Below the pieces are notes generated by a model that searched no databases, was not told the origin of the DNA, and saw nothing but the letters and a program-made list of their open reading frames with translations. A stretch of DNA of 6,271 nt, from positions 575,130-581,400 of the forward strand of contig CP070726.1 in assembly GCA_020350865.1 (NCBI GenBank), read 5' to 3'. Positions within the stretch are counted from its first letter, which is position 1; every line of letters starts with the position of its first letter. The stretch is from Thermoplasmata archaeon (GTDB lineage: Archaea > Thermoplasmatota > Thermoplasmata > GCA-020350865). The position numbers and the translations under genes were made by a program. Shown here one piece after another: positions 1 through 6,271 of this stretch.

Positions 1-519
1 AGCAATTACTTGATATTGAAACAAGGATGGAATTTAATCTCGATCCCCCTCATCCAGGAGGAGCAGAACCTAACTCAGGTGCTCAAGTCCATAGAAGGAT
101 GGTACGATGCGGTCCAGTGGTATGATAACGCTGATACCAGCGACCACTGGAAACATCACAAGGTGGGCAAACCCTTCGGAAATGACCTGTCCGAGCTGAA
201 CGAAACAATGGGTTTCTGGATTCACATCACCAAACCGGGAGACACCATCTTCATCTGCAACGGCACCGAACCCACGGAAAATCAAACCATCCCTCTCCAC
301 CCGGGATGGAACATGGCGGGTTTCCCTTCCCTTACAAACAAGAACAGGACCGCTGCGTTAAACAATCTCACATTTGGTGTGGAGGTGGATTCGATATGGG
401 CTTTTAATGCCTCGTCCAATAAATGGGAAGAACTTGCCAGTCCATCGGACCGCTTCGAGCTCGGCCGCGGTTACTGGCTCCACGTCACCCAAGGGTGCGA
501 ATGGGAGGTCCCCATGTAA
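1..519 (+). CDS. C-terminal part of a large archaeal surface protein with duplicated GWN-type module (5' end outside window)
   Basis: The frame is open from the first base, so only the last 172 residues are visible. A TTG at position 10 is probably an internal leucine and not a start. The visible part holds two copies of one module. Copy 1 covers about residues 5-86 and copy 2 about 97-170. Each has a GWN motif (residues 9-11 and 102-104), a proline seven residues after the glycine, an aromatic core strand (VQWYDN, then SIWAFN), a tryptophan (50, 142), and a closing GFWIHIT or GYWLHVT strand. Seven N-x-S/T sequons (NLT, NET, NGT, NQT, NRT, NLT, NAS) suggest a glycosylated extracellular protein. 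Similar GWN modules are known at the C-termini of secreted archaeal proteins, though I cannot name this family. No membrane anchor or sorting signal is seen before the TAA stop. Function is unknown; a cell-surface or adhesive role is an inference. Confidence 0.75.
   Translation, partial: SNYLILKQGWNLISIPLIQEEQNLTQVLKSIEGWYDAVQWYDNADTSDHWKHHKVGKPFGNDLSELNETMGFWIHITKPGDTIFICNGTEPTENQTIPLHPGWNMAGFPSLTNKNRTAALNNLTFGVEVDSIWAFNASSNKWEELASPSDRFELGRGYWLHVTQGCEWEVPM
13..510 (+). repeat. Internal duplication: two tandem GWN modules in the surface protein
   Basis: Two protein-level repeats lie in tandem, about nt 13-258 and 289-510, separated by a short Thr/Asn linker. Aligned landmarks are KQGWN with HPGWN, QWYDN with WAFNA, and ELNETMGFWIHIT with FELGRGYWLHVT. 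The DNA copies are well diverged, so this is an old domain duplication and not a recent tandem repeat. Confidence 0.65.
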
Positions 520-557: not shown

Positions 558-902
558 TCAAGCACTCGCCTTTTCAACTATCACCCTTTGCCCGTCGACC
601 CATATTTCCACTTCATCCTTGTTAGTCAATTCCAGTGCATGGACGATGTCCTTTGGAATCCTGAGTATCAGGCTTTTCCCGTCCGAACTCAATGTGCGGT
701 GCAAGGCCAGAGATTTTGGCGGGCCGCGCAGTCTTTCAAGGATATTGTAGAAGTGCTCGGCCTGCTTTGTGCTCATCGTGATATGGCCGCATCCTGTGCA
801 CTTAAATGCAGGAACATCATGAATGGTGATCTTTTCTTCCTCGATATCGTAATCGATTTTCGTCTCTTTCATCTTTTTTCCACACTTCGGGCACTTAGTC
901 AT
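558..902 (-). CDS. YgiT/MqsA-type zinc finger fused to AbrB/MazE-type DNA-binding domain (antitoxin-like regulator)
   Basis: This is a complete 114-residue protein. Residues 1-45 form a zinc finger with paired CxxC motifs (CPKC at 4-7, CTGC at 35-38) separated by an acidic strand region and VPAFKCTGCGH. That is the arrangement of the YgiT-type finger of the MqsA antitoxin. Residues about 68-112 match a swapped-hairpin AbrB/SpoVT/MazE domain: a short LSSDGKSLILRIPKDIV core, then NKDEVEIWVDGQRVIVEK. In MqsA the second domain is a helix-turn-helix, so here a different DNA-binding fold takes that place. Proteins of this layout are annotated as antitoxin-like or as transcription regulators. No toxin-sized partner gene lies on either side, so it may be a free-standing regulator. 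It has its own TATA box and essentially no leader. It is convergent with the upstream surface-protein gene and divergent from the tungstate operon. Family assignment is firm; function is inferred. Confidence 0.85.
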   Translation of the reverse strand: MTKCPKCGKKMKETKIDYDIEEEKITIHDVPAFKCTGCGHITMSTKQAEHFYNILERLRGPPKSLALHRTLSSDGKSLILRIPKDIVHALELTNKDEVEIWVDGQRVIVEKASA

Positions 903-1068: not shown

Positions 1069-1085
1069 CATTACCATGGTGAATG
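1069..1085 (+). promoter_or_regulatory. Imperfect palindrome at the predicted transcription start of the tungstate operon
   Basis: CATTACC-AT-GGTGAATG is an inverted repeat: CATT-ACC pairs with GGT-AATG with one bulged G. It covers the predicted transcription start and the ATG itself. A repressor bound here would block a leaderless gene. No second copy is seen elsewhere in the window, so an operator role is only a suggestion. Confidence 0.25.
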
Positions 1086-2759
1086 GCCGAGAATATTACA
1101 ACTTCGAATGATGAAGCACAGGTGGAAGAATCAAAGCCGAGACCCTCCGAACATACCGGGAAATACAAGGGGAGAACATTTGTCTGGATAGTCGCCCTTC
1201 TCCTTATCATATCCGCCCTGGCATTTGCCCTCTACCTCACAGGCAACCCCTCCTCCGAAAGAACCCTGCTCCTCGCCACAACCACCTCCACAGCAAACTC
1301 CGGGTTGCTCGACTACATCCTCCCTGAATTCGAGGAGCGGTACGATTGCACCGTTAAGGTCACCCCCGTGGGCACGGGCCAGGCCCTGGAGATGGGCAGG
1401 AGGGGGGATGTGGATGTGCTCATGGTTCATGCCCCTTCGAAAGAAGAGGATTTTGTCAGAGAAGGATACGGGACGCAGAGATTTGCCGTCTGCTACAATT
1501 ACTTCGTCATTGTCGGTCCCACTTCGGATCCCGCTGATATAAAAAATGCGAATAATGTATCTGATGCCGTAAAGATTATTTTCTCCTCAGAATCAACATT
1601 CGTTTCAAGGGGCGATGATTCGGGTACACATACCATGGAAAAGGCTCTGTGGGAGGCTGCGGGTTACGACTATAATTCTGAAATCGACATCCCCGAAAAT
1701 GGCTGGTACTACTCGGTTAGCGCGGGCATGGGCAACACGCTCGTCAGGGCCAACGAACTTGAGGCTTACACATTGACCGACGAGGGGACCTTCTATGCAT
1801 ATGAGGGCAGTCTCGATTTGGATGTGGTCCTTCGTGAGGACCCGAATCTTCTAAATCAATACAGTATCATTCCTGTTAATCCCGGAAAATTCACGCATGT
1901 GAATTTTGAGGCGGCTTGGGACTTTGTGGAATGGATCACATCCGAAAGTACACAGGAAAGAATAGGTGATTTCGAGGCCAACGGTCACAACCTGTTCGTG
2001 CCCAATGCGGATCAGGATATTGCTGATGGAGGAACGGGGGGAGATGAATTCGCTGCCGGCTCGTCTTCAGACGAAACAGAACGGGTCATTGGAATCACGT
2101 TGCTCACATTATATATGGCGGCCTGCAGCACCACCATCTCAAGTCTAATAGGCATCCCGGTTGGAACCTTCCTTGGACTGAGAAAAACCAAATTTTCCTC
2201 CTTGATAAAGGTCTTCACGCACACCCTGTACGGCCTTCCACCAGTCATCGCAGGCCTTGTCATATTCATCCTCCTTTCCAGGGCGGGACCTCTTGGAAAC
2301 CTGGGAATCCTATTCACTCCAACCGCCATGATACTTGCCCAGGTTCTTCTGATCACCCCATTAATAATCGGTCTTACTGCCTCTGCCATCTCTGCCATTC
2401 CGCAGATGACAATCGATTCGGCAAGAACCCTCGGGGCCAGGCGGTTTTCACTTTTGAAAACGATGTTAATCGAATCCAGAATCGGGATATTCACGGGCAT
2501 TATGATCGGATTCGGAAGGGCGATTTCGGAGGTGGGTGCAGTAATTATAGTGGGAGGCAACATCAAATGGCACACTCAGGTTGTAACAACAGCCATCGTC
2601 CTGGAGACCCAGAGGGGGAATTTCGATTTCGCCTTGATTCTGGGGGCGATACTCATCGCACTGGCCCTGGTTACATCCATAGTTCTAACGGTTCTTCAGG
2701 GGAGATTTAAAACAGGAAAAAACGGCAGAGTGATATTTAAGTTGAGAAATGGAGGGTGA
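1083..2759 (+). CDS. Tungstate ABC transporter, substrate-binding protein fused to permease (TupA-TupB fusion)
   Basis: This 558-residue protein joins two importer subunits normally made separately. Residues 1-32 are hydrophilic and 33-52 are one membrane segment. There is no lipobox cysteine, so it is probably an uncleaved anchor that places the next domain outside the cell. Residues about 60-310 are a TupA-type binding protein: ATTTST (65-70) followed by NSGLLD, PVGTGQAL (95-102), GDVDVLMVHAP (109-118) and SRGDDSGTH (175-183), the oxyanion-binding signatures of this family. After a Gly/Ser/Asp-rich linker (315-332) comes a TupB-type permease with about five membrane segments (335-366, 374-399, 410-433, 466-492, 515-538). 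It has a cytoplasmic EAA loop, DSARTLGARRFSLLKTML (445-462), that docks on the ATPase. The topology works: outside domain, EAA loop and C-terminus inside. An in-frame TGA at 1080-1082 fixes ATG 1083 as the earliest start. Tungstate is favoured over molybdate by family; specificity is unproven. Confidence 0.88.
   Translation: MAENITTSNDEAQVEESKPRPSEHTGKYKGRTFVWIVALLLIISALAFALYLTGNPSSERTLLLATTTSTANSGLLDYILPEFEERYDCTVKVTPVGTGQALEMGRRGDVDVLMVHAPSKEEDFVREGYGTQRFAVCYNYFVIVGPTSDPADIKNANNVSDAVKIIFSSESTFVSRGDDSGTHTMEKALWEAAGYDYNSEIDIPENGWYYSVSAGMGNTLVRANELEAYTLTDEGTFYAYEGSLDLDVVLREDPNLLNQYSIIPVNPGKFTHVNFEAAWDFVEWITSESTQERIGDFEANGHNLFVPNADQDIADGGTGGDEFAAGSSSDETERVIGITLLTLYMAACSTTISSLIGIPVGTFLGLRKTKFSSLIKVFTHTLYGLPPVIAGLVIFILLSRAGPLGNLGILFTPTAMILAQVLLITPLIIGLTASAISAIPQMTIDSARTLGARRFSLLKTMLIESRIGIFTGIMIGFGRAISEVGAVIIVGGNIKWHTQVVTTAIVLETQRGNFDFALILGAILIALALVTSIVLTVLQGRFKTGKNGRVIFKLRNGG
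2751..2758 (+). promoter_or_regulatory. Ribosome site supporting the TTG start of the ATPase gene
   Basis: GGAGGGTG overlaps the stop codon of the permease fusion and lies four bases before TTG 2763. It is close to the archaeal consensus GGAGGTG and supports an unusual TTG start with a 3-base intergenic gap, i.e. translation-coupled expression. Confidence 0.6.
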
Positions 2760-2762
2760 ACA

Positions 2763-3494
2763 TTGGAAATTGAACTGAAAGGCGTTTCGAAAAATTTCAA
2801 CGGAAAAAAGGCGCTTTCCAATATCGATTTGAAGGTGGGACCGGGCAAGATCATCGCAATAATCGGCCCCTCCGGATCCGGAAAAACAACGCTTCTCAGG
2901 ATCATCAACCTCCTGGATCTCCCCTTACATGGAACCCTTGCTCTTGATGGTAAGGACGCTGTGAAGCTGACCAATGGTGAACGCCATGAATTGAGAAAAC
3001 GGATGGCCCTCGTGTTTCAGAACCCCAGCCTGTTTCAAAGGACAGTAAAAGATAATGTGGCCTACGGTCTGAAGATTCGATACATGCACCCTGAGATCAT
3101 CGAAAAGGAGGTGCAAAAAGCCCTGAAACTGATCGGTTTAGATGAATTGAAGTATCAATTTGCACCGACCTTATCGGCCGGCGAGGCGCAGAGGGTGTCC
3201 TTTGCCAGGGCCATCGTTTTTAGGCCCGAACTGCTGCTGCTGGATGAATTCACAGCCAACCTGGACCCTGCAAATGTCAGGCTCCTTGAGGAGAGCGTGG
3301 TCAATTTCCATGCAAAAACCAATGCCACCATCGTTTTGGCCACCCACAACCTGTTTCAGGCCCGACGCCTGGCCCATGAGGTGGTTTTCATATATGACGG
3401 TAGAATCGTCGAATACGGGGAAAAAGAGGCATTCTTCTCCCATCCCCATCATCAATTAACCCGTTCATTCCTCTCGGGAGAGCTTGTTTATTGA
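2763..3494 (+). CDS. tupC: Tungstate ABC transporter ATP-binding protein (TupC-like)
   Basis: This 243-residue ABC ATPase powers the importer by docking on the EAA loop of the fused permease at the cytoplasmic membrane face. All motifs are intact: Walker A GPSGSGKT (35-42), Q-loop glutamine 86 in FQNP, signature LSAGEAQR (137-144; Ala replaces the usual second residue), Walker B LLLLDEF (157-163), D-loop NLDPAN and switch histidine 195 in ATHN. It stops soon after the nucleotide-binding domain and lacks the C-terminal TOBE/regulatory domain of ModC or WtpC, which fits the short TupC type. Two copies would be needed per transporter. It follows the permease stop by three bases and uses TTG as start, backed by a good ribosome site; starting here gives the normal first strand MEIELKGVSK. 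The ABC-ATPase call is certain. The substrate is inherited from the neighbour. Confidence 0.92.
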   Translation: MEIELKGVSKNFNGKKALSNIDLKVGPGKIIAIIGPSGSGKTTLLRIINLLDLPLHGTLALDGKDAVKLTNGERHELRKRMALVFQNPSLFQRTVKDNVAYGLKIRYMHPEIIEKEVQKALKLIGLDELKYQFAPTLSAGEAQRVSFARAIVFRPELLLLDEFTANLDPANVRLLEESVVNFHAKTNATIVLATHNLFQARRLAHEVVFIYDGRIVEYGEKEAFFSHPHHQLTRSFLSGELVY

Positions 3495-3540: not shown

Positions 3541-3552
3541 AAAAATATATAA
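3541..3552 (+). promoter_or_regulatory. TATA box of the winged-helix/KaiC operon
   Basis: AAAAATATATAA is a strong archaeal TATA element preceded by TTTTAACG. Transcription should begin near 3573, giving a leader of about 35 bases. Within that leader, AACAT (3571-3575) and ATGTT (3589-3593) form a spaced inverted repeat that could be a binding site for the encoded regulator, though its arms are only 5 bp. GGAG (3598-3601) lies seven bases before the ATG at 3609 as ribosome site. Confidence 0.6.
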
Positions 3553-3608: not shown

Positions 3609-4193
3609 ATGAAAGACTATGATGCTATTAGAGGAAAGAAGCCCACCAAAACGGAGAACATCCTTGAATACATGGTGGATCACCCAAACGAGGTGCTTTC
3701 TCCTAAAAAGGTGGCGGACGAACTGGGATTCAACCTGCAAACAACTGTCACAGTGCTTAACCGTTTGGCCATGGAAGGGGCCATCTCAAAGGAGGCAAGG
3801 GGGCAGTTCTGCTATCATTCCAAAGAGAAGGCGGAAAAGAAGGAAGTCAAAGGCGCTGAAAAGGAAAGAGAGGACTTCGCCGGGCCCTCATTGGATAAGA
3901 AAAACGCCCCCATTATATACAAGGCCATTTACCATATGGCAAGTGAAAGCACAGGACCTGATATTTTGAAAACAATTACCGGGCTCGGTCCTGACGATTT
4001 CGATGACAAGGCTCCGATAGAATCCATTAAGAACCTCATAGCGGGCTTAATCGATGTCCTCGGAGAGGAGATGGCGGTTGATATTGTCAGCATCGCACTT
4101 CAGAGCGAGTTGAAACCGAAGAAGGATACGAACCTGAAGCAATTGATGGAGTCATGGGAGGATTTATTATGGAAGGAAATGAGTCGTTCGTGA
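3609..4193 (+). CDS. Winged helix-turn-helix protein with unrecognised helical C-terminal domain
   Basis: This 194-residue, probably cytoplasmic protein has three parts. Residues 14-72 fit a winged helix: helix ENILEYMVDHPNEV, then LSPKKVADELG, a likely recognition helix around LQTTVTVLNRLAMEG (43-57), and a wing AISKEARGQFCYH. Residues 73-97 are a Lys/Glu-rich linker. Residues 98-190 are predicted mostly helical (IIYKAIYHMA, IESIKNLIAGLIDVLG, MAVDIVSIALQSEL, LKQLMESWEDLLW), and I do not recognise this domain. It is first in an operon with two KaiC-type genes, and its last 25 bases overlap the next gene, so the products are likely made together. A transcription regulator, or a DNA-binding partner of the KaiC proteins, is the natural guess. 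There is no ligand domain of the ModE type, so nothing ties it to the tungstate genes upstream. The start has a GGAG site at seven bases. Confidence 0.8.
   Translation: MKDYDAIRGKKPTKTENILEYMVDHPNEVLSPKKVADELGFNLQTTVTVLNRLAMEGAISKEARGQFCYHSKEKAEKKEVKGAEKEREDFAGPSLDKKNAPIIYKAIYHMASESTGPDILKTITGLGPDDFDDKAPIESIKNLIAGLIDVLGEEMAVDIVSIALQSELKPKKDTNLKQLMESWEDLLWKEMSRS
4156..4161 (+). promoter_or_regulatory. Ribosome site deciding the start of the KaiC-like gene
   Basis: GGGAGG lies seven bases before ATG 4169 and inside the preceding gene. The same frame has an earlier ATG at 4154, but that one would place the ribosome site within the coding sequence and has no good site of its own, so 4169 is preferred. 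Confidence 0.65.
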
Positions 4194-4918
4194 TAAGAAG
4201 GGTACATACAGGCATACCGGGACTGGACGAGCTGGTGGACGGTGGTTTTCCAGAGAACACTGTCAATCTGGTTGCCGGACCCACGGGCAGCGCAAAGACG
4301 CTTTTCGGCATGCAGTTCATTTACAACGGGGCCGTGGAGTACAATGATGTGGGCATTTATGTCACCTTAGAGGAGCGCAAGGAAAACATTCAGAGGGGCA
4401 TGTGGTCCTTTGGTATGGATGTGAACCGGGCCGAAAAAGAGCGCAAGATGATTCTGGTGGATGTGAGCAAAATCAGGGCAAAGCTGCACTCGGACAGTGA
4501 TATGACCAGGGGTATCGTGGGGTTTGCCAAACTTCAAAATTTCCTGGAAAGATTCCTGTCCGCAACGCAGGCCAAGAGGTTCGTTTTGGATTCAATAACC
4601 GCTGCAGGGATGTCCTACAAAGAGAACGAGCTGATGAGACAGGAGCTCTTTGCTTTCTCATCCTTTCTTCAGGAACAGGATATCACCTCCCTTCTGATAA
4701 CAGAATCAACCAACGAGACAGGTGATCAGACAAGATACGGGGTGGAGCAATTCGTGGCCGATTCTTTCATCAACCTCGGACTTGAGCGGCTCTCAGGTGA
4801 ATTGAGGAGGTCCATTACCATCAGGAAGATGAGATTCACCAGGCACGATACAAAAGTGCACCCCCTGCTGATCACCAAAAAGGGGATAATAGTCGAGTCT
4901 GAGGCTGAGGTGTTCTGA
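4169..4918 (+). CDS. KaiC-like RecA-superfamily ATPase, single domain
   Basis: This 249-residue protein (from ATG 4169) is one KaiC/RadA-fold ATPase domain. The N-terminal signature TGIPGLDELVDGGFP (14-28) is typical of KaiC. The P-loop is GPTGSAKT (37-44), with Ala where the Walker A consensus has its last glycine; the lysine and threonine remain. TLEE (66-69) supplies the paired catalytic glutamates. Walker B is RFVLDS (137-142). The C-terminal RKMRFTRH (219-226) matches the KaiC RKMRGTxH element, which contacts the neighbouring subunit's nucleotide. Such proteins form ATP-dependent hexameric rings. In archaea they act in signalling, regulation and, as ArlH, in motility, but the neighbours here are not archaellum genes. 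It overlaps the winged-helix gene by 25 bases and is followed after one base by a degenerate KaiC-like partner. It looks ATPase-competent, with the Ala as the one doubt. The biological role is unknown. Confidence 0.9.
   Translation: MEGNESFVIRRVHTGIPGLDELVDGGFPENTVNLVAGPTGSAKTLFGMQFIYNGAVEYNDVGIYVTLEERKENIQRGMWSFGMDVNRAEKERKMILVDVSKIRAKLHSDSDMTRGIVGFAKLQNFLERFLSATQAKRFVLDSITAAGMSYKENELMRQELFAFSSFLQEQDITSLLITESTNETGDQTRYGVEQFVADSFINLGLERLSGELRRSITIRKMRFTRHDTKVHPLLITKKGIIVESEAEVF
4907..4912 (+). promoter_or_regulatory. Ribosome site supporting the GTG start at 4920
   Basis: GAGGTG lies seven bases before GTG 4920, inside the last codons of the KaiC-like gene. The spacing equals that of the other two genes of this operon. 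It supports GTG as start with a one-base gap between the genes. Confidence 0.6.
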
Positions 4919-4919
4919 G

Positions 4920-6271
4920 GTGGAAAACAAGGTAAAGAGCGGAATTACAGGATTTGACTTGCTCGTTGGAGGGGGCATTCCCAGCGGGCATTCTGTTCTA
5001 CTGAGGGGGCCCAGTGCCCAGGAAAGCAGTATTTTCATCAATCAATATGTCAAAAAGGGACTTGAGAATTTCGAGCCCGTCCTCGTGGTGCTGTCCAGAA
5101 TATCCCCGGATGCATTCAGGCAAAATCTCAGAAACATCGGTGTAGATGCCAGGAAGTACGAGAAGAGCGGGTACCTCGTTATTGTTGACTGGTACTCGTT
5201 TAAAAGCGGTGTTACGGTGGCGGAGGTTGAGGAAAGGGACGGTGTGATTTACGCGTCAAAGGATCTCACACACATCGGCATCGCCATCTCAAGAGGATTG
5301 AAAAAGCTCCCCGAGGCCCCCATAAAAAGGGCTGTGCTCGATATCCTGTCCCAGGCCCTGAATTTCTTCGAATACAAGAGAACCTACAATTTCATTCAGG
5401 CCATGGCGGCACGATCGAGACGGAATAACCTCACCACTATATTCCCCATGGAAACCCAGGGTTCTGAATCAAAAGATCTCTCCGCCATCCAGGCGATTTT
5501 CGACGGTGTAATCGACCTAAAGTTAGAGCGAGTGGGAGATAGGATCTACAGAAGAGTGGGCATTCTTTCCATGAGCGGCGTTCAGTTCGATTCAAGGTAT
5601 AAAACCTACAGAATCGAGAACTACGAGATGATAATAGGTGAAAAGAAGATAAAACTGGAAGCACCGAAGAAGATACAGCCTGAAGAAATGGAAGGATTGC
5701 CCGGAGAAAAGGAACCCTCAAAACTGCCAACGGAGGCAGAGCAGGAGATCAAATCCAAGATAAGGAAGGTAAAGGACAATCCTGACAACGCCGACATGTG
5801 GTTTGACCTGGGAACCACCCTGCTCACATATGAAAAATATGAGGATGCCATTCGCTCCTTCGACAAGGTTATCGAGAACGACCCGAGTTTTACGCAAGTA
5901 TGGAATGCGAAAGCCGAGGCGCTCACCGCCGTTGGAAGGCATGAGGAGGCGGCGGAATGTCTGAAGAAGTCTGTTGAGGTCTCTGTCAAGGAGCTCGGGA
6001 AGGGTGTTGAGGTCCCGCTGATGAAGGACCTTGAAAAGGAGCTCATGGTTATCCTAGAAGACGTTGAGGGAAAGGTTCCGTCTGAGGGGGGCGCCGAGGA
6101 AGTATTGGAGTTCGAGTGCCCGGTCTGCGGCTCCTCGGTCCGCGAGGATGCCATTCAATGCCCCAGCTGCGGGGCAAAATTCGCAGAGATGGAGGAGGTC
6201 CCGGAAAAAGTCCTTGCAAAGATGGAAGAGAAAGCGGCTGTTTCGGCTCCTCCCCTGACCACTGAGTTGGC
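4920..6271 (+). CDS. ATPase-dead KaiC-like protein with TPR repeats and zinc ribbon (3' end outside window)
   Basis: GTG start; 450 full codons are visible and the frame is still open at the edge. Residues 1-240 follow the KaiC fold: SGITGFDLLVGGGIPSGH (7-24) matches the family's N-terminal signature, VLD (139-141) the Walker B strand, and FDGVIDLKLERVGDRIYRRV a late strand pair. The P-loop is destroyed: RGPSAQESSIF (29-39) lacks the glycines and the lysine. The catalytic glutamates are also gone (LSRI, 58-61, where the neighbour has TLEE). ATP hydrolysis is therefore very unlikely. A charged linker (241-285) leads to two TPR-like repeats, about 291-324 (WFDLGTTLLTYEKYEDAI) and 325-358 (WNAKAEALTAVGRHEEAA). 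Then comes a four-cysteine zinc ribbon, C400, C403, C414 and C417. Inference: a non-catalytic partner or adaptor for the KaiC-like ATPase encoded one base upstream. What follows residue 450 is unknown. Confidence 0.85.
   Translation, partial: MENKVKSGITGFDLLVGGGIPSGHSVLLRGPSAQESSIFINQYVKKGLENFEPVLVVLSRISPDAFRQNLRNIGVDARKYEKSGYLVIVDWYSFKSGVTVAEVEERDGVIYASKDLTHIGIAISRGLKKLPEAPIKRAVLDILSQALNFFEYKRTYNFIQAMAARSRRNNLTTIFPMETQGSESKDLSAIQAIFDGVIDLKLERVGDRIYRRVGILSMSGVQFDSRYKTYRIENYEMIIGEKKIKLEAPKKIQPEEMEGLPGEKEPSKLPTEAEQEIKSKIRKVKDNPDNADMWFDLGTTLLTYEKYEDAIRSFDKVIENDPSFTQVWNAKAEALTAVGRHEEAAECLKKSVEVSVKELGKGVEVPLMKDLEKELMVILEDVEGKVPSEGGAEEVLEFECPVCGSSVREDAIQCPSCGAKFAEMEEVPEKVLAKMEEKAAVSAPPLTTEL

What the first reader, a model, noticed from the sequence alone, without database searches (positions are those of the whole stretch)
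3609..6271. Three-gene module: winged-helix regulator, KaiC-like ATPase and an ATPase-dead KaiC-like adaptor
The three genes share a promoter, overlap or nearly touch (25-base overlap, then a 1-base gap) and have matching ribosome sites. Together they encode a DNA-binding protein with an unknown effector domain, a KaiC-type ATPase, and a second KaiC-fold protein that has lost catalytic residues while gaining TPR and zinc-ribbon parts. Pairing of active and inactive members of an oligomeric ATPase family often means a mixed ring or a sensor-plus-adaptor complex. None of the standard KaiC partners (KaiA, KaiB, archaellum genes) is present. Gene order and motifs are seen; joint function is inferred.
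Basis: partly seen in the sequence, partly recalled or inferred. Interest (0 to 1): 0.72.

Follow-up and report, generated by a model that had tools for sequence, protein, structure and literature searches.

The report
Archaeal live/dead KaiC signalling cassette
Three neighbouring archaeal genes encode a DNA-binding protein, a working KaiC-type ATPase and a broken KaiC copy that in close relatives is the inner end of a giant membrane protein, an arrangement kept in distant relatives that looks like an unstudied way to carry outside signals to genes.

Summary
In detail: regulator (3609-4193), KaiC (4169-4918) and an inactivated KaiC (iKaiC) with TPR and zinc ribbon (4920-6269, cut by the window end). 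The trio is not local: a named Thermoplasmata chromosome has the same order. Of 50 loci compared, 13 keep regulator-KaiC-iKaiC, 10 show KaiC-iKaiC, 12 regulator-iKaiC, 15 neither; four more trios came from a phylum sample. Exception: one regulator-KaiC pair has no iKaiC within 5 kb. Partner KaiCs keep catalytic residues in 25 of 25 rows; iKaiCs keep the Glu pair in 0 of 56. Partners form one tree group against 23 other KaiCs (83/86). Best reading: a signalling cassette in which a dead KaiC couples a sensor to a live KaiC and its regulator. KaiC hubs and iKaiC are published, so this is a new variant of a known kind. Function is inferred.

The parts
3541..3552 (+). TATA-like stretch, putative promoter of the three genes
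   Evidence: read by eye; not tested
3609..4193 (+). winged-helix regulator (194 aa): wHTH ~14-70, linker ~74-95, small all-helical C-terminal domain with a hGxxhAxxhh motif
   Evidence: weak MarR_2; 50 relatives besides itself, 48-69% identical; model pLDDT 72.7, pTM 0.44; no Foldseek match at E <= 0.001; wHTH superposes on Z-alpha, 1qbj, rmsd 1.2 A over 60 columns, E 0.047; motif kept in distant regulators
4157..4161 (+). GGAGG ribosome site of KaiC (7 bases before the ATG at 4169)
   Evidence: read by eye
4169..4918 (+). active-type single-domain KaiC ATPase (249 aa), the 'partner' KaiC
   Evidence: PF06745 1.5e-66; motifs GPTGSAKT, EE, LDSITA, KMRxxxH; groups with 24 other partner KaiCs
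4920..6269 (+). inactivated KaiC (iKaiC, aa 1-245), TPR (aa ~287-357), zinc ribbon (aa 397-421); 3' part beyond the window
   Evidence: (no Walker A Lys, no EE, no KMRxxxH); L001 and P0060/P0061 relatives continue to 2028-2065 aa

Best explanation
It is an archaeal signalling cassette. The dead KaiC (iKaiC) is the receptor or scaffold part: in close relatives seen at full length it is the N-terminus, probably cytoplasmic, of a giant protein with one membrane segment, 1,200-1,340 residues probably outside, and a second C-terminal hydrophobic anchor. The live KaiC made from the adjoining gene docks on it (probably as its own ring stacked on the iKaiC, or a mixed assembly) and acts as an ATP-driven switch; its state controls the adjoining winged-helix regulator through that protein's helical C-terminal domain, and so gene expression. 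Shown: gene order, motif state, conservation, sequence architecture of relatives. Inferred: topology, physical binding, direction of signalling (outside-in), effect on the regulator.
For: Regulator-KaiC-iKaiC in 13 of 50 loci (window, L001, 48 fetched), KaiC directly before iKaiC in 23 of 50, a regulator in 25 of 50 (the L053 regulator is a weak 48-bit match). Neighbours occur in 5 of 11 iKaiC clusters at 45% identity and trios in 4 of them, one only through L053. Four further trios in a phylum sample. Partner KaiCs 25 of 25 keep Walker A Lys, EE and KMR; iKaiCs 0 of 56 assessable rows keep EE. Partners form one group of 25 against 23 other KaiCs from four of these genomes (83/86; 81% of bootstraps); 0 of those 23 loci (3.6 kb each; 30 of 86 KaiC matches were fetched) have an iKaiC over 200 bits or a regulator of either family, against 6 of 6 and 5 of 6 partner loci. 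17 of 17 uncut membrane-type iKaiC ORFs carry a hydrophobic segment and NG motifs. Precedent for a KaiC homologue working with a transcription factor: CirA/CsmR in Haloferax (passages of PMC13286277).
Against: No interaction was tested. Of 50 loci, 12 have a regulator but no KaiC beside iKaiC, 10 non-membrane iKaiCs and 5 membrane ones have neither. L162 has a regulator (85 bits) and a partner-type KaiC (351 bits) with no iKaiC in the next 5 kb. The four extra trios have iKaiCs of 650-744 aa with no membrane segment, so the membrane part is not universal, and L124 is a 1688-aa membrane iKaiC without either neighbour. The window's gene is cut before any membrane segment, and three relatives, P0002 (514 aa, 65% identical), P0003 (415 aa) and P0004 (532 aa, 52%), have none; whether contig ends cut them is not known. 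A KaiC of G361 outside the partner group (33.6 bits to the partner profile) has a weak regulator-like gene beside it (25.8 bits, L010).
Confidence: 0.5

Rival explanations
1. Inside-out reading: the KaiC pair is an ATP-driven cytoplasmic controller that assembles, anchors or gates the giant membrane protein (as ArlH, a KaiC homologue, does for the archaellum), and the regulator merely controls transcription of its own operon.
For: KaiC ATPases are reported beside archaeal type IV pilus and archaellum operons (PMC4858521 passages; ArlH as KaiC homologue, PMC13286277 passages); the iKaiC is fused to the membrane protein.
Against: Trios with iKaiC lacking a membrane segment exist, so the core occurs without a surface part; a regulator is kept beside iKaiC where KaiC is absent (12 of 50) and beside KaiC where iKaiC is absent (L162), which suits signalling to DNA better.
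Confidence: 0.25
2. Mixed live/dead KaiC hexamer used as a purely cytoplasmic sensor, the TPR and zinc ribbon recruiting clients.
For: Both are KaiC folds encoded by adjoining frames; partner and iKaiC are next to each other in 23 of 50 loci; the distant trios have no membrane segment.
Against: iKaiC lacks the EE pair (0 of 56) and the Lys of KMR (0 of 57), so alternating subunits would break neighbouring active sites (inference); three close full-length relatives are membrane proteins.
Confidence: 0.15
3. Adjacency is passive: an old operon kept by descent without joint function.
For: A neighbour of uncertain relation, the tungstate-type ABC transporter, also stays adjacent in the window and L001.
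Against: Two regulator families that align only weakly, in the wHTH, occupy the same slot; order and gaps of 2-11 bases persist in divergent lineages; the transporter was not seen in the other 48 loci, some of them cut short.
Confidence: 0.1

Closest known systems
KaiC-like ATPase signalling hubs of archaea and inactivated 'iKaiC' (Makarova, Galperin, Koonin 2017 mBio: recalled, not held; iKaiC named in PMC5847659, passages read)
   Same: KaiC family expanded (14-26 matches per genome in four genomes), active and inactivated copies, linked to regulators
   Different: This cassette pairs one distinct live KaiC group with iKaiC and a regulator gene; in many loci iKaiC heads a giant membrane protein with TPR, zinc ribbon and NG-repeat linker. 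Whether the 2017 paper already lists it could not be checked.
Cyanobacterial KaiC (CI-CII double domain)
   Same: Sequence match and catalytic motifs of gene 2
   Different: Split into separate proteins, one dead; no KaiA/KaiB among the window ORFs scanned
CirA/CsmR of Haloferax volcanii (PMC13286277, passages)
   Same: KaiC homologue acting on the pathway of a transcription regulator encoded nearby (csmR hvo_1209, cirA hvo_1212)
   Different: CsmR is described as similar to Lrp/AsnC-type regulators; the passages read mention no dead KaiC or membrane receptor
KaiC plus DEATH-like helical protein beside archaeal T4P (PMC4858521, passages)
   Same: KaiC paired with a small helical protein
   Different: Here the helical domain is fused to a wHTH; homology to DEATH domains was not shown (among the 50 rows listed the tight superpositions cover only the wHTH)

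Membership tests
KaiC family ATPase (PF06745), gene 2 | profile match plus Walker A Lys, catalytic EE, Walker B Asp | tested here: met
KaiC family ATPase (PF06745), gene 3 | profile match | tested here: met
   2.1e-26
KaiC family ATPase (PF06745), gene 3 | catalytic residues (Walker A Lys, EE, KMRxxxH) | tested here: not met
   hence iKaiC, not an active KaiC
Circadian KaiABC clock | double-domain KaiC with kaiA/kaiB neighbours | tested here: not met
   single-domain KaiC; below the NCBIfam circ_KaiC cut-off (132 of 546 bits); no kaiA/kaiB among the seven window ORFs scanned; genome beyond the window not held
Archaellum ArlH/FlaH | NCBIfam ArlH cut-off (215 bits) and arl neighbours | tested here: not met
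   47.1 bits; no archaellum family matched among the window ORFs scanned
KaiC-iKaiC receptor cassette (proposed here) | iKaiC fused to a membrane segment and external region | tested here: inconclusive
   window gene cut at its end; L001, P0060, P0061 have it; P0002-P0004 do not show it, possibly cut
KaiC-iKaiC receptor cassette (proposed here) | physical KaiC-iKaiC complex | not testable with these tools
   only single-chain models available
PEF-CTERM sorting signal | NCBIfam TIGR03024 cut-off 23 bits at the C-terminus of giant relatives | tested here: inconclusive
   3 tails: L061 23.1 (met), L001 12.6 and L044 9.2 (not met)

The most novel reading that the evidence does not exclude
A further kind of prokaryotic transmembrane signalling: the receptor's output domain is a dead RecA-fold ATPase (iKaiC) that templates a live KaiC ring, which passes the signal by ATP hydrolysis or phosphorylation to a dedicated winged-helix regulator, in the place of a histidine kinase and response regulator.
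Probability: 0.3. Interest if true: 0.85.

Novelty: new variant of a known kind. Interest (0 to 1): 0.62.

Why it matters
Archaea have expanded KaiC families (14-26 matches in each of four genomes searched) with mostly unknown inputs and outputs (recalled). This cassette names candidates for both in one distinct KaiC group: a possible surface input (giant iKaiC protein) and a DNA output (the adjoining regulator). That makes the proposal that KaiC proteins are archaeal signalling hubs testable with three genes.

Tried and rejected
Third-gene homologues in the large protein set: 8 hits at E <= 0.001, the window's own protein, 3 close relatives, and 4 distant TPR or KaiC proteins (only the 7999 candidates sharing most words were scored). 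A search with residues 1-430 of the 2053-aa relative gave 4 hits, 2 of them close. Regulator in viral contigs: none. Regulator in genome contigs: 1 locus. Structure of the region after the membrane segment (L001 with P0060, P0061): pLDDT 37, unusable; lenient Pfam found nothing useful there. Regulator model: no Foldseek match at E <= 0.001. Profile comparison of the two regulator families: probability 6%, wHTH columns only, so I do not call them one family. Considered and rejected: circadian clock and archaellum component, sigma-70 promoters (2 found, 2.0 expected; archaeal promoters are not covered by that scan).

Selection. The 240 of 400 genomes matched at 1e-10 mostly have weak matches, which I take for generic KaiC or TPR and do not count. 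The 48 fetched loci plus L001 are 49 of the 50 listed places with E <= 4.5e-39 (G473:C81, a cut 325-aa frame, was left out), so the tally describes close iKaiC relatives, not all archaea. Many are near-copies: 30 clusters at 80% and 18 at 60% identity. Upstream sequence is short in some: of the 10 non-membrane loci without neighbours only 6 have 1.4 kb or more before the ORF; of the 10 KaiC-iKaiC loci without a regulator 5 lack room for one (L054, L057, L060, L067, L068). L120-L123 were picked because one search had put a regulator match on the same contig as iKaiC. Genomes with a regulator match (9 plus G391): six are trios (G001, G294, G021, G030, G037, G073); G077 is regulator-KaiC near a contig end; G391 has one regulator-KaiC pair without iKaiC (L162) and one partial match with no KaiC in its 2.2-kb locus (L012); G361 has a weak regulator-like gene beside a KaiC outside the partner group (L010); G346 has a weak match with no KaiC in its 3.2-kb locus (L009). 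Contig lengths that suggest regulator and iKaiC share metagenome contigs (P0036/P0060 19317, P0033/P0061 10405, P0023/P0002 4767) are suggestive only.

Changed after the self-check: cluster counts (5 and 4 of 11, not 4 and 3), longest uncut ORF (2371 aa), ribosome-site coordinates, the L162 exception and the short relatives P0002-P0004 added.
Full report
What is there. Searches confirm three same-strand genes, 3609-4193, 4169-4918 and 4920-6269, with a 25-base overlap and a 1-base gap. Pfam gives a weak winged-helix match for the first, KaiC (1.5e-66) for the second, and KaiC (2.1e-26), TPR and zinc ribbon for the third. The second has Walker A, the EE pair and KMRxxxH; the third has lost them. 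The third gene is open at the window end. No whole genome is held for the window; the protein set places it on a 2,495,319-base contig and holds the third protein as 451 aa, which suggests (inference) that the contig ends there.

It is a conserved cassette. One genome contig of the GTDB collection encodes a close relative of the regulator: CP070751.1, a Thermoplasmata archaeon (L001). It shows the same run: tungstate-type ABC transporter, regulator, KaiC, iKaiC. There the third gene is 2053 aa. A profile of the third protein was run on 400 class-level relatives of that genome; I fetched 48 of the best places and asked what lies directly upstream. Of 50 loci (window, L001, 48): regulator-KaiC-iKaiC in 13; KaiC-iKaiC with no regulator seen in 10 (5 of these lack room for one); regulator directly before iKaiC in 12 (the L087 frame is irregular); neither in 15. 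The 15 are 10 iKaiCs without NG linker or hydrophobic segment after residue 300 (only 6 with 1.4 kb or more upstream) and 5 membrane ones. So 35 of the 40 membrane-type loci have at least one of the two neighbours; 4 of the 40 (window, L052, L076, L077) are cut before the linker and placed there by similarity. From KaiC's last codon to the start of the iKaiC match is 2-11 bases. Two regulator families fill the first slot: the window's (3 loci, the L053 match weak at 48 bits) and a second one (22 loci). Single-linkage clustering of the iKaiC domain at 45% identity leaves 11 clusters; neighbours occur in 5, trios in 4 of these, one only through L053.

A wider search of 389 genomes of the phylum, read with the regulator matches, led to four more trios, L120-L123, with distant members of the window's regulator family (30-40 bits), a KaiC, and an iKaiC of 650-744 aa with no membrane segment. 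These were picked because a regulator match was known on the same contig. In the same batch of 12, L129 shows regulator and KaiC near a contig end, L128 a second-type regulator directly before iKaiC, and L124-L127, L130 and L131 neither. The hGxxhAxxhh motif of the regulator's C-terminal domain is kept in the distant regulators.

Results against a strict trio. G391 carries a regulator (85 bits) and a partner-type KaiC (351 bits) with no iKaiC in the 5 kb that follow (L162). L124 is a 1688-aa membrane iKaiC with neither neighbour. P0002, P0003 and P0004, relatives of the third protein at 52-65% identity, are 415-532 aa without a membrane segment; P0002 and P0003 lie on contigs of 4.8 and 2.3 kb and may be cut, P0004 lies on one of 18.6 kb.

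Live and dead. Partner KaiCs keep the Walker A Lys, EE and KMR in 20 of 20 rows and 5 of 5. Of 50 iKaiC rows, 49 can be judged at Walker A and EE: none has EE and none has Lys followed by Ser/Thr, although many keep the Lys; 7 further rows also lack EE. The Lys of KMR is gone in all 57 rows; Arg or Lys stands at the Arg position in many. iKaiC has its own conserved residues, among them the DW of IVDWYS, RA at 137-138 and FDG (15 rows), so it seems to be under selection for something other than catalysis (inference).

A specific pair. Four of these genomes have 14-26 KaiC-family matches each, 86 in all, iKaiCs included. Thirty came as loci: 6 partners, 1 iKaiC and 23 others. In a tree of 25 partner KaiCs and those 23 others the partners fall in one group (83/86, 81% of bootstrap trees). 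Caveats: domains were cut out with a profile built from partners, several outside rows are long branches, and near-copies inflate clustering. Window and L001 KaiCs group with L120-L123 and L129 (92/84), matching their regulator family. In the 3.6-kb stretches around the 23 others, 0 have an iKaiC over 200 bits or either regulator; of the 6 partner loci, 6 have an iKaiC and 5 a regulator. Outside those 23, a G361 KaiC has a weak regulator-like gene beside it (25.8 bits, L010).

The giant form. Seventeen of 17 uncut membrane-type iKaiC ORFs (957-2371 aa) have a 19-residue stretch of mean hydropathy 1.96 or more after residue 460 and at least 3 NG motifs. The closest to the window are L001 (2053 aa; iKaiC part 57% identical to the window's) and P0060 and P0061 (2065 and 2028 aa; 60-61% identical to L001): iKaiC, TPR, several zinc ribbons, a NGLTNG linker, a membrane segment, two regions with IDGxFxDW, FG-GAP repeats, and an IPEF-hydrophobic-basic tail (the repeats of P0060/P0061 by their precomputed domains). 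One tail of three reaches the PEF-CTERM cut-off (L061). Topology is read from hydropathy only. The exact strings TNGLTNG and NGLTNGL occur in no paper of the library searched.

How it probably works. The outer part senses or binds; iKaiC inside holds the live KaiC; KaiC's ATP state controls the adjoining regulator. Only anatomy, conservation and motif state are shown. The rival in which KaiC serves the display of the membrane protein is not excluded.

What is known. Seven paper searches and passages of four papers (PMC6393860, only a reference to the 2017 paper; PMC5847659; PMC13286277; PMC4858521) showed inactivated KaiC ('iKaiC'), KaiC beside archaeal pili and with a DEATH-like helical protein, and a KaiC homologue working with a transcription regulator in Haloferax, but not this cassette. 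The key 2017 mBio paper was not held, so novelty is stated with caution.

Noticed in passing
window 1083-3494: Tungstate-type ABC transporter: the substrate-binding protein and permease are fused in one 558-aa ORF (TupA-like 217 bits, below the 400 cut-off; TupB-like 141 bits, below 320), while L001 has them as two ORFs (352 and 236 aa). Next to the cassette in L001, not seen in the other 48 loci.
   Followed up: partly
window 558-902 (-): Small protein with a YgiT-type zinc finger and a MazE-like C-terminus, an antitoxin-like layout; no toxin was looked for beside it.
   Followed up: no
L001 10312-16473 and many others: NGLTNG repeat linker between zinc ribbons and the membrane segment, up to 24 NG motifs in one ORF (L085); no match for the exact strings in the paper library.
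   Followed up: partly
L043, L044, L074, L076, L078: KaiC ORFs without ATG, GTG or TTG near the expected start; a CTG follows a GGAGG-like site and may be the start.
   Followed up: partly
L120-L123, L125: iKaiC proteins carry an unidentified N-terminal region of about 270 residues before the KaiC fold; L130 and L131 also extend before it.
   Followed up: no
L162 (G391:C249): Regulator (85 bits) and partner-type KaiC (351 bits) as a pair with no iKaiC in the 5 kb that follow.
   Followed up: partly
window 1-519: 3' end of a gene with weak Kelch matches, cut by the window start.
   Followed up: no
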